Position numbers and translations under genes: made by a program. From contig QCHH01000008.1 of NCBI GenBank assembly GCA_003279585.1, positions 1 through 63,249 of the forward strand: 63,249 bases of DNA, read 5' to 3'. Shown in pieces: positions 59,489 to 63,249 of the stretch (its first letter is position 1; each line of letters opens with the position of its first letter). The stretch comes from Prochlorococcus sp. AG-402-A08. Its GTDB lineage: Bacteria; Cyanobacteriota; Cyanobacteriia; PCC-6307; Cyanobiaceae. Under the pieces are notes generated by a model. The model was not told where the DNA came from, did not search any database, and saw only the letters and a program-made list of their open reading frames with translations.

Positions 59489-60346
59489 TTATTTGTCCAA
59501 TAACATAATTAATGAACGTATAACTTTTGCAGCCAGGATACTACTAATACCAGAGTTATCTAATTTGGGAGATAATTCGACTACATCTGCGCCAATTAAG
59601 TTATGAGACTTGATCACATCTATTATTGCTGCAAAATCTCCCCAAAAATAACCTCCGGGTTCTGGAGTGCCTGTGCCTGGCATTACAGATGGATCAAACC
59701 AATCTAAATCAAAAGTTAAATAGATTGGTTTCCCTTTGAAATTTTTTAGAGCTTCTTCTAAATATTTAGCATTCTCTCCATAAGTATGTTTAATTAATCT
59801 TTTAGTATTATTCATTTCAAGGAATTCCGATTTTGTTCCACTTCTTATTCCTATTTGAAAGATCTTTTTGCTAGGTAGTATTTCTAAACATCTTTTCACG
59901 TTCCAAGGAATCGAAACTATTGAGTCATGCCTTTCCCATGCAGCAGAAGATAAAGAAACCTTTTCACTTAAACCAATCGTTTGTAAGGCTTGAACTATAT
60001 CGTTATCATCAATTTCCTTATCTATAGTTATGGGCATTATCAAAACTTGCGCTTCTGCAGGGTCAGCCATCACATGTACTGACAAATCTTCTAAAGCTCT
60101 TTCAAAAAATATTTTTCTCATTCGACTTGTTAAAGGAGAACCCATAGCTTGCGCAAACAATTCCAAGCTTTCTTTGTCTCCAGACAGCCCACAATTTAAA
60201 GTTAACCAGATTAAAAATTTAACCCAACTATCTACGCTCCAAAGTGGCTGAAAGCTATCTCGCTTACTATAAATTAATTCCATCAATGCAAATTCAAATG
60301 CTTTTGCTTGAATAGAAGTGCGAGATATTTGTTCCATAGAAGACAT
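59489..60346 (-). CDS. Chimera: conserved unknown protein fused to agmatinase C-terminal half
   Basis: 285 aa from the ATG at 60346 (TTG at 60355 also possible). Residues up to about 150 (AKAFEFALMELIYSKRDSFQ, VMADPAEAQVLIMPI, WERHDSIVSIPW) look like a complete conserved picocyanobacterial protein of unknown function. From KRCLEILPSKK (about 59895 downward) it becomes the C-terminal half of an arginase-family ureohydrolase: IFQIGIRSGTKSEF, YLTFDLDWFDPSVMPGTGTPEPGG and GADVVELSP. The N-terminal metal ligands of that family (GGDH- and DAHxD-type) are missing, so agmatinase activity is not expected. A separate speB start is present at 62950 on the other strand. This is a rearrangement junction or an assembly chimera. 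Confidence 0.75.
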   Translation of the reverse strand: MSSMEQISRTSIQAKAFEFALMELIYSKRDSFQPLWSVDSWVKFLIWLTLNCGLSGDKESLELFAQAMGSPLTSRMRKIFFERALEDLSVHVMADPAEAQVLIMPITIDKEIDDNDIVQALQTIGLSEKVSLSSAAWERHDSIVSIPWNVKRCLEILPSKKIFQIGIRSGTKSEFLEMNNTKRLIKHTYGENAKYLEEALKNFKGKPIYLTFDLDWFDPSVMPGTGTPEPGGYFWGDFAAIIDVIKSHNLIGADVVELSPKLDNSGISSILAAKVIRSLIMLLDK

Positions 60347-60400
60347 TTTCTCCAACTACAGCCAAACTAGTGTTTATTGTTCATTATCTGTTTATTTGTC

Positions 60401-60652
60401 ATGGATCTGAACGACCCTGAACTTGAGTTCTCCGATCTTGTCTACGCATATCAAAGCTGGGTAATTGCTGTAATCAACGATGAAAAATTAAATAGTAAGG
60501 AAAAGTTGCTTACAGAAGAAATATCGGATGATGCTTTAAATGCTATGAGATTCTTACCGGGCGAAGTAACTAATGCAATTGAAACAAGTTTAGCTCGCGT
60601 CTATGAAGTGGATTCTGAGGAACTCTCTTCAATCTTGTTTCCAGAAGAATAG
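60401..60652 (+). CDS. Conserved picocyanobacterial protein, 83 aa
   Basis: From the ATG at 60401 (MDLNDPELEFSDL). A small acidic, mostly helical protein: LVYAYQSWVIAVINDEKL, then DDALNAMRFLPGEVTNAIE and an acidic end. I recognise the type from marine picocyanobacteria but no function is known. It is divergent from the chimeric gene, 54 bp apart, and convergent with the IscA-like gene. Confidence 0.7.
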   Translation: MDLNDPELEFSDLVYAYQSWVIAVINDEKLNSKEKLLTEEISDDALNAMRFLPGEVTNAIETSLARVYEVDSEELSSILFPEE

Positions 60653-60679
60653 AGTCAATTTTCTAATTGTTTTAAGCAA

Positions 60680-61030
60680 TTATTGAACTTTTGAAAGTTT
60701 TCTAAAGCCTGATCCACATGGAGAAGCTTCTGCCCCTTTTGGCGTGCTAATTAGAAATCCACCTCCACTTAAATCACCAAAATAATTCAGCTTTAGACCT
60801 TGAAAAAATAGGACTTGATCTTGGCGAGCATACAAAGTAATCCCATCAGCTCTAGCGAGGGGAACACCATCATTTTTCCCTGGCCTAATTCTTATAAATT
60901 TCCATCCCTCTCCACTCTTGTCATCCAGTAGATCAATATGCATAACTCCTGGTGTTCCAGTAAAAGCAGCTTGCCTATTTAATTCTGCTACTGCTGTTGC
61001 TGAAATTTTTAATCCAGGACCATTTTGCAT
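60680..61030 (-). CDS. HesB/IscA-like protein lacking cluster cysteines
   Basis: 116 aa. ISATAVAELNRQAA opens the A-type carrier fold and FQGLKLNYFGDLSGGGFLIS precedes the end, as in the HesB/IscA family. Only one cysteine remains (SPCGSGF, where the family has CGCGxSF) and the first conserved cysteine is absent. It therefore cannot bind an Fe-S cluster in the classical way. tRNA-Val lies directly upstream on the same strand. Confidence 0.8.
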   Translation of the reverse strand: MQNGPGLKISATAVAELNRQAAFTGTPGVMHIDLLDDKSGEGWKFIRIRPGKNDGVPLARADGITLYARQDQVLFFQGLKLNYFGDLSGGGFLISTPKGAEASPCGSGFRKLSKVQ

Positions 61031-61050
61031 AAATTAAAAAGTAATCTAGA

Positions 61051-61122
61051 TGGGCGATCCAGGGTTCGAACCAGGGACATCCTGCTTGTAAGGCAGGCGC
61101 TCTACCGCTGAGCTAATCGCCC
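61051..61122 (-). tRNA. tRNA-Val (UAC)
   Basis: 72 nt on the minus strand. Acceptor arms GGGCGAT and ATCGCCC pair, the D arm begins AGCTCAGCGGTAGAGC, the anticodon stem CCTGC/GCAGG closes the loop CTTACAA with anticodon TAC, and the T arm is CCTGGTTCGAACCAGG. The 3' CCA is not encoded. Confidence 0.95.
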
Positions 61123-61204
61123 ATACAACTTTTAGTCCTTAGACTAATTCATGTACTTTATACCTCAAGCTGCTCTGTTGTTGAGAATTAATCATAATTA
61201 AATC

Positions 61205-61225
61205 AACGATTCAAAAAAAATCGTT
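61205..61225. repeat. Short inverted repeat before mazG
   Basis: AACGATT and AATCGTT flank a 7-nt loop CAAAAAA, ending just before the ATG at 61228. It could occlude that start, favouring the ATG at 61264, or mark the mazG leader. Confidence 0.35.
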
Positions 61226-61227
61226 TT

Positions 61228-62076
61228 ATGAGCTTCGTTAAAGCTCTCTTAGGACAACTAAAAATGACAAACACAAACCAAATAAATTTAGACCAAAAAA
61301 TCAATAAGCTGCTTGAAGTAGTTTCAGACCTAAGAGATCCAATCAATGGTTGTCCTTGGGATCTCAAGCAAACTCATCTTTCGTTGATCCCATATGTTTT
61401 AGAGGAAGCCTATGAAGTTGCTCACGCAATACGAGAAGAAAATCCTAACGAATTAAAAGAAGAGCTTGGAGATCTCTTATTGCAAATAATTTTGCATGCT
61501 CAAATAGCAAAAGAAAAAAACTTATTTGATATGGGAGATATCATTGACATAATTACTGAAAAGCTCATTCGCAGGCATCCACATGTATTTCAAAAAAAAG
61601 CAACAAAAAGTATAAAAGAAGTGGAATACTCATGGGAAAAAATCAAGAACAAAGAGAAACCATTAAATAACTCAAAAACTCCAATTAGTGACCGATTAAA
61701 ATTAAAGATACGACCTCAACCTTCAACGAAAGCAGCACTCATAATCTCTAACAAAGCTTCAAAAAACGGATTCGAATGGGAAAAAAGTGATCAGATTTGG
61801 GATAAATTGTACGAAGAATTAGAAGAATTGGAAGATGCATTAAAAGCTGATCAGCCCGCCAAGGCAGAGGCTGAAATAGGAGACGTATTATTTACATTGA
61901 TCAATATTGCAAGATGGCATAAAATATCTATAGAAGAAGGATTAGCGAAAACTAATCAAAGATTCCTAGAACGATTAAATTATATAGAAGAAAATATAGA
62001 GGGCGAATTACATTCCCAATCAAAAAAGAATTTAGAGAAATTCTGGGAATTAGCGAAGATTAATCTCAAGCATTAA
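61228..62076 (+). CDS. mazG: Nucleoside triphosphate pyrophosphohydrolase MazG
   Basis: 282 aa (270 if the ATG at 61264, with AGGA 13 nt upstream, is used). Two MazG domains: the first with [28 protein letters not shown] (split) and [17 protein letters not shown], the second with [13 protein letters not shown] and [16 protein letters not shown]. It hydrolyses NTPs or (p)ppGpp-like nucleotides and is often placed near speE in Prochlorococcus. speE starts 10 nt after its stop. Confidence 0.93.
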
Positions 62077-62086
62077 TATTATACTT

Positions 62087-62953
62087 ATGAATAACAGACT
62101 AAAGACTAGGTCAGACTGGCTTGACGAGTATCATCAAGGAGTTAGATATGGACTACTTGGAAACTTAATACTAGAAGAGTCTAGTCCTTTTCAAAAAATT
62201 ACCATCTTTGAAAGCAAGAGATATGGCAAAGCACTATTACTTGATGATTGTTGGATGACAGCAGAAAAGTCTGAAAAATGTTATCACGAATGTCTTATTC
62301 ATCCTGCCTTATCTTGTTCTACGCAAATAGATAATATTTTAATTATTGGAGGAGGTGATGGGGGTAGTGCAAGAGAATGTTTAAAATATAAAGAGGTTAA
62401 GTCTATCGATTTAGTTGAAATCGATCTAAGAGTTATTGAATTAAGTAAAAAGTATTTACCTACTATCGGAGGGAATGCATGGTCTGACTCAAGATTGCAT
62501 TTACAAATCAAGAATGGAATTGATTGGGTAAAACATGCAAAAGAAAATTCATATGATGTGATTATTATTGATGGCGCAGATCCTATTGGACCCTCCAAAG
62601 AATTATTCAGCAATTCGTTTCTGACAGACTGCAAACGAATATTGAAACGAGGAGGAGTTTTAGCAACTCAAAGTGAATCACCAGAATCTTTTCGGCAAAT
62701 TCATATAAACATTGTCAAAGTTCTGCGTGAAATTTTTGACTACGCAGATCCAATGTATGGATCTGTATCAATTTACCCAAGCGGTTTATGGAGCTGGACA
62801 TTTGCATCTATGGAGAAGCCCAAATATATGAATCCAAAAAAAAGTCGCGTGAATGAAATCTCTGAAAATTGTCAGATTTGGAGTGAGAGATGGCAACAAG
62901 GTGCATTTAATATTATTCCTGCATTCATAGAAAGAGAGCTAGCAAAAAGATGA
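62087..62953 (+). CDS. speE: Spermidine synthase
   Basis: 288 aa aminopropyltransferase joining decarboxylated SAM and putrescine. [20 protein letters not shown] (one stretch), the SAM-binding [13 protein letters not shown], the substrate-gate [14 protein letters not shown] and [14 protein letters not shown] are present. The stop overlaps the next gene start by 4 nt (ATGA), so speE and speB are coupled. Confidence 0.94.
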
Positions 62954-63249
62954 GCAAACCCAACCTCAAGGATCTATCACTATTTAATAACGATGGTGCA
63001 ATATTCATGGGAGGACAAAGAAGCATCAATCAATGCAAAGTGTCGCTGTTAGGAGTTCCTTATGATGGAACTTGTTGCTTTAGACCTGGCGCAAGATTCG
63101 GTCCTTCTGCTGTTAGGGAAGATAGCTATGGAATTGAAACATATTGTCCGCAATTAAATTTAGATTTAGAAGATATCAAATTTGCTGATTTAGGTTCATT
63201 AAATGTTCCCCTTGGAGATGCAAAACTTACAATTGATTACGTAAAAGAC
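62950..63249 (+). CDS. speB: Agmatinase, N-terminal part, cut by window end
   Basis: The ATG at 62950 opens [39 protein letters not shown] and [14 protein letters not shown] are typical of the arginase/agmatinase family N terminus. 100 codons are seen before the window ends, before the metal-binding motifs. Agmatinase makes putrescine for SpeE, fitting the coupled pair. A C-terminal agmatinase half is present separately at 59489 on the other strand. Confidence 0.85.

What the first reader, a model, noticed from the sequence alone, without database searches (positions are those of the whole stretch)
59489..63249. Agmatinase split over an apparent inversion junction
The minus-strand gene at 59489-60346 joins a complete-looking conserved unknown protein to the C-terminal half of an agmatinase, switching near position 59900. 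The N-terminal half of an agmatinase starts at 62950 on the plus strand, coupled to speE. As I recall, mazG-speE-speB-gcvT-aspS are collinear in other Prochlorococcus. Here gcvT is followed by the speB 3' half in the expected place and direction, while mazG-speE-speB 5' point the opposite way. That is what one inversion with a breakpoint inside speB would leave. It predicts a reciprocal junction just beyond the window end. It would cost the cell its agmatinase unless another copy exists. An inverted chimera from whole-genome amplification or assembly would look the same.
Basis: partly seen in the sequence, partly recalled or inferred. Interest (0 to 1): 0.72.

Follow-up and report, generated by a model that had tools for sequence, protein, structure and literature searches.

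The report
Inverted amplification chimera splitting agmatinase gene
The gene that seems to be a fusion of an unknown protein with half an agmatinase is almost certainly a DNA-amplification and assembly artefact at the end of a draft Prochlorococcus contig, not a real rearrangement.

Summary
The minus-strand ORF at 59489-60355 joins an unknown gene, short of its last three codons, to the C-terminal half of SpeB. The N-terminal 100 codons of speB are at 62950-63249, where the contig ends. The junction (59892-59898) is 7 bp shared by both parents. In 26 of 26 congeneric genomes with both pieces on one contig, the pieces lie on opposite strands. None of the 40 other genus genomes searched has the junction. 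I read it as an inverted chimera from whole-genome amplification, kept by the assembler. Evidence: inverted joining of segments 3.5 kb apart at a short shared sequence; a contig that stops 184 bp before it would re-enter its own inverted arm (chance about 0.8%); no match found for the valS side of the locus in this 86%-complete, 69-contig assembly; and a second junction of the same geometry at the start of contig C2 (1 of 6 other contigs compared). A real private inversion is not excluded without reads, but is unlikely. The cell most likely has an intact speB.

The parts
59489..59898 (-). 3' part of speB (arm A), from about codon 163 to the stop, collinear with gcvT-aspS
59892..59898 (.). chimeric junction: 7 bp (CTTTTCA) found in both parent loci, which lie inverted and 3.54 kb apart in G016
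59892..60355 (-). gene of unknown function (157 aa in G016, no Pfam match at E 0.001), here without its last three codons and stop
59892..63249 (+). arm B: segment inverted relative to the rest of the contig (unknown gene, 91-aa ORF, 116-aa ORF, tRNA-Val, mazG-like, speE-like, 5' part of speB), ending at the contig end
62950..63249 (+). 5' part of speB, codons 1-100; the contig ends 184 bp before the breakpoint position

Best explanation
It is an inverted chimera made in vitro. During strand-displacement amplification of the cell's DNA, a 3' end copying out of gcvT into speB came loose. Its last 7 bases paired with a matching stretch near the end of the unknown gene on a displaced strand 3.5 kb away, and copying resumed in the opposite direction. 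The valS side of the true locus was probably under-amplified, so the assembler followed the chimeric path and stopped near where that path would run back into its own arm inside speB. The genome itself probably has the normal order and an intact speB. Shown: the junction, the shared bases, the geometry, the contig end, the unmatched flank, uniqueness among the genomes searched, and a second similar junction. Inferred: that the assembly comes from amplified DNA of a single cell, and the in-vitro event itself.
For: (1) Inverted joining with an intervening deletion, 3.54 kb apart in G016, 7 shared bases. In amplified DNA of one E. coli cell 406 of 475 chimeras were inverted, the inverted ones tended to be under 10 kb apart, and 93.5% of those had complementary bases at the join (2 to 21 nt) (PMC1855051, part 1 of 4 of the text). 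(2) A shared run of 7 or more bases arose in 0.076% of 200,000 random inverted joins of the 16-kb G016 stretch. (3) The contig ends 184 bp short of the re-entry point; about 0.8% by chance for a contig end in this direction within 191 bp. (4) No DNA match in G000 to the valS side (L034:1-5628; 40 of 109 first-look candidates scored); best-scoring match to the valS protein only 28% identical. (5) A second inverted junction at the start of contig C2: bases 1-359 lie inverted to bases 350 onward, with 337 bp between the parts in G025 and 336 in G033. (6) Junction in 1 of 41 genus genomes, its own; no strand flip in the 47 loci compared, 37 of them distinct and one of these the reference itself. 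(7) G000 is 69 contigs, 86.32% complete; the closest named record is AG-402-I21, and AG-402 is a single-cell plate in PMC6122165 (passage).
Against: No call shows that G000 is an amplified single-cell genome; its record is unnamed. I had no reads. The contig stops 184 bp short, which the 100-bp end trimming of one pipeline (PMC5519541, passage) does not by itself explain. Of the 6 other contigs compared with complete relatives, 4 show no such junction and C7 is uninformative over its first 4.5 kb. The C2 junction lies in a tandem gene array, where real rearrangement is easier. Short inverted repeats would also serve a real inversion.
Confidence: 0.93

Rival explanations
1. A real, private inversion of about 3.5 kb between 7-bp inverted repeats, one in speB and one in the unknown gene, which destroys agmatinase in this cell.
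For: The arrangement is one inversion away from the order of relatives. No other PF00491 gene is in the assembly. A single-contig congener, G033, has a 1-base deletion in speB, so loss may be tolerated.
Against: It does not predict a contig end within 190 bp of the second breakpoint (about 0.8%), nor the C2 junction. No reciprocal junction was found, though the valS side is not in the assembly at all, so this is weak. No other genome searched has it.
Confidence: 0.05
2. Inverted duplication: a full speB lies beyond the contig end and the 3' fragment is an extra copy.
For: The contig is cut inside speB, so a full copy beyond its end is not excluded.
Against: 59489-63249 matches only itself in the assembly (40 of 56 first-look candidates scored). 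The order on both sides is otherwise that of relatives.
Confidence: 0.01
3. An old, functional fusion of the unknown protein with part of an arginase-fold domain.
For: The fused frame is open over 288 codons.
Against: Found in none of the relatives searched. It lacks codons 101-162 of speB, which hold the GGEHS and DAHAD segments; that these carry metal ligands is my general knowledge of ureohydrolases.
Confidence: 0.01

Closest known systems
Inverted chimeras of multiple displacement amplification (Lasken and Stockwell 2007, PMC1855051)
   Same: [quoted passage not shown] a second example in the same assembly.
   Different: Seen here in assembled contigs, not in single reads; the amplification history of this genome is inferred.
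Agmatinase-type SpeB (PF00491) between speE and gcvT in relatives
   Same: The 3' part is 95% (G034) and 93% (G016) identical in protein to the same part of relatives' speB; the identity of the 5' part was not measured on its own.
   Different: Here the gene is in two pieces, with about 61 codons between them missing from the contig.

Membership tests
MDA inverted chimera | second segment inverted relative to the first, with the sequence between them left out | tested here: met
   strand flips at 59892-59907; 184 bp of speB between the contig end and arm A are missing
MDA inverted chimera | segments near each other (tending to be under 10 kb) | tested here: met
   3.54 kb in G016
MDA inverted chimera | short complementary sequence (2-21 nt) at the junction | tested here: met
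   7 bp; 0.076% of random inverted joins have 7 or more
MDA inverted chimera | private to the amplified sample | tested here: met
   1 of 41 genus genomes, its own; no flip in 47 loci (37 distinct, one the reference). No second genome of the same species was available
MDA inverted chimera | source DNA was amplified with a strand-displacing polymerase | not testable with these tools
   G000 is unnamed; only its draft state and its relatives' names point to it
Real chromosomal inversion | reciprocal junction (5' part of speB to the valS side) | tested here: inconclusive
   no match to the valS side in the assembly
Functional agmatinase | complete metal site (GGEHS, DAHAD and TFDLDWFDP segments; role recalled) | tested here: not met
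   codons 101-162 are absent from the contig; only the third segment is in the fused ORF

The most novel reading that the evidence does not exclude
A real, very recent inversion between 7-bp inverted repeats removed agmatinase from this one cell lineage.
Probability: 0.05. Interest if true: 0.3.

Novelty: not a real feature. Interest (0 to 1): 0.08.

Why it matters
It shows how one amplification chimera in a draft genome can yield a false gene fusion, a false gene loss and a false inversion at once. The sign seen here twice, a contig that stops a few hundred bases before it would re-enter its own inverted arm, needs no reads and could be tried as a screen on other draft assemblies. If the inversion were real it would be a case of agmatinase loss in Prochlorococcus.

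Tried and rejected
A second copy of speB elsewhere in the genome: none found. The reciprocal junction: the valS side gave no match in the assembly, so no test. Explaining the 184-bp shortfall by contig-end trimming: the pipeline passage gives 100 bp, and it is not known that G000 came from it, so this stays unexplained. Naming the window's organism through genome contigs: the record of this genome was not among the 35 loci, and the tool says such records may be left out. No structure prediction was made, since the fused protein is most likely not real.

Full report
Observation. The ORF at 59489-60355 on the minus strand is 288 codons long and open. Its first part matches a gene of relatives that is 157 aa in G016 and has no Pfam match. 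Its second part matches about the last 138 codons of an arginase-family gene. The first 100 codons of that gene are at 62950-63249 on the plus strand. The window is the whole of contig C8, so the contig ends inside speB. The assembly has 69 contigs, 1,594,446 bases, 86.32% completeness, and no other PF00491 match.

Comparison with relatives. With the fused protein as query, 50 of 60 relatives have a match; 36 of the 60 are of the same genus, of which 31 match and 5 do not. In 26 of the 31 both pieces lie on one contig, and in 26 of these 26 they are on opposite strands, with about 2.8 to 3.1 kb between the matched stretches; in the window they are on the same strand and fused (counted by eye from the table). 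Of the other 5, three have one piece only and two have the pieces on two contigs. Six of the 26 are single-contig genomes. I compared 47 loci of this region with the G025 stretch, counting alignments over 150 bases: none has a strand flip. Ten pairs among the 47 are duplicates, so 37 are distinct, and one is the G025 stretch itself; 34 of the 47 reach past both breakpoints, 29 distinct, the reference included. The shorter loci L004-L032 were not put through this comparison. A 26-base pattern across the junction, up to 3 mismatches, occurs in 1 of the 41 genus genomes held, the window's own.

Junction. Against G016 the left arm (3' part of speB, reverse complement) matches up to 59898, and the right arm (unknown gene) from 59892 on, so 7 bases, CTTTTCA, belong to both. 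The two places are inverted and 3.54 kb apart in G016. In 200,000 random inverted joins of that 16-kb stretch 0.076% shared 7 bases or more. Short inverted repeats would also serve a real inversion, so this alone does not decide.

Contig end. The contig stops at the position equal to G016 L034:8985, and the arm already in the contig begins at L034:9170, so 184 bp are missing. A chimeric molecule would run on from there into the inverted copy of its own first arm, where an assembly graph closes on itself. A real inversion gives no reason to stop there; the chance of an end within 191 bp in this direction is about 0.8%, or 1.7% for either direction. The valS side of the normal locus gave no DNA match in the genome (40 of 109 first-look candidates were scored), and the matches to the valS protein are 28-39% identical, as other synthetases would give. 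Loss of that side in amplification would leave the chimeric path as the only one there; this is inference.

A second case. As a control I fetched the starts of 8 other contigs and compared 6 with complete congeners: C2, C7, C20 and C30 with G025 and G033, C3 and C12 with G025 only. C1 and C5 were not compared with a reference. Only C30 was compared over its whole length; of the others I saw only the first 20 kb. C2 begins with 359 bases inverted relative to what follows from base 350 (from 349 in G033). Between the two parts lie 337 bp in G025 and 336 bp in G033, and the alignments overlap by 10 and 6 bases at the join. The parts look like the 5' and 3' portions of one gene of a tandem array (pcb-like by recall). 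Again the contig ends a few hundred bases before re-entry. C3 (up to base 19461, no match beyond), C12, C20 and C30 show one direction in their main matches. C7 does so from about base 4,500 on, and its first 4.5 kb fall in a repeated family and say nothing. So 1 of 6 contigs compared shows a second junction of this kind.

Rest of the window. Against the fetched stretches of G034 and G016 the window is collinear from 3 to 59907, alignments over 300 bases considered, except for an 11.6-kb stretch at 33735-45374 absent from that place in both. The only strand flip is at 59.9 kb.

Literature. In the abstract and the first of four parts of the text of PMC1855051, 406 of 475 amplification chimeras were inverted, the inverted ones tended to be under 10 kb apart, and 93.5% of those had complementary bases at the join. 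Passages of PMC6122165 describe Prochlorococcus single-cell genomes made by MDA or WGA-X and assembled with SPAdes, plates AG-311, AG-315, AG-363 and AG-402 among them. Passages of PMC5519541 give 100-bp trimming of contig ends, and also say that Prochlorococcus single-cell assemblies tended to have the fewest misassemblies among the strains tested, which speaks for such errors being rare there, not absent. The 35 named loci are Prochlorococcus records, most with AG- names and two titled as MAGs. Whether G000 is a single-cell assembly is inferred.

Verdict. The fused gene and the split speB are best read as an amplification chimera kept by the assembler (0.93). A real inversion is kept at 0.05.

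Noticed in passing
window 33735-45374: An 11.6-kb stretch absent from the same place in G034 and G016 holds what look like a nitrate reductase, a nitrate transporter and molybdenum-cofactor genes (names from reading the translations), i.e. a nitrate-assimilation island.
   Followed up: partly
L037 (part of G033:C1:1379000-1395000), about 9675-9685: speB of this single-contig genome has a 1-base deletion in a run of G that shifts the frame near codon 248; real loss or sequencing error is open.
   Followed up: partly
L093 (G000:C2), bases 1-359: Inverted terminal segment of the same geometry as the finding, in a tandem gene array.
   Followed up: yes
L096 (G000:C7), bases 1-4385: The 20-kb query gave 62 matches in G033 and 12 in G025, most of them to its first 4.4 kb: a dispersed repeat or gene family, larger in G033.
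   Followed up: no
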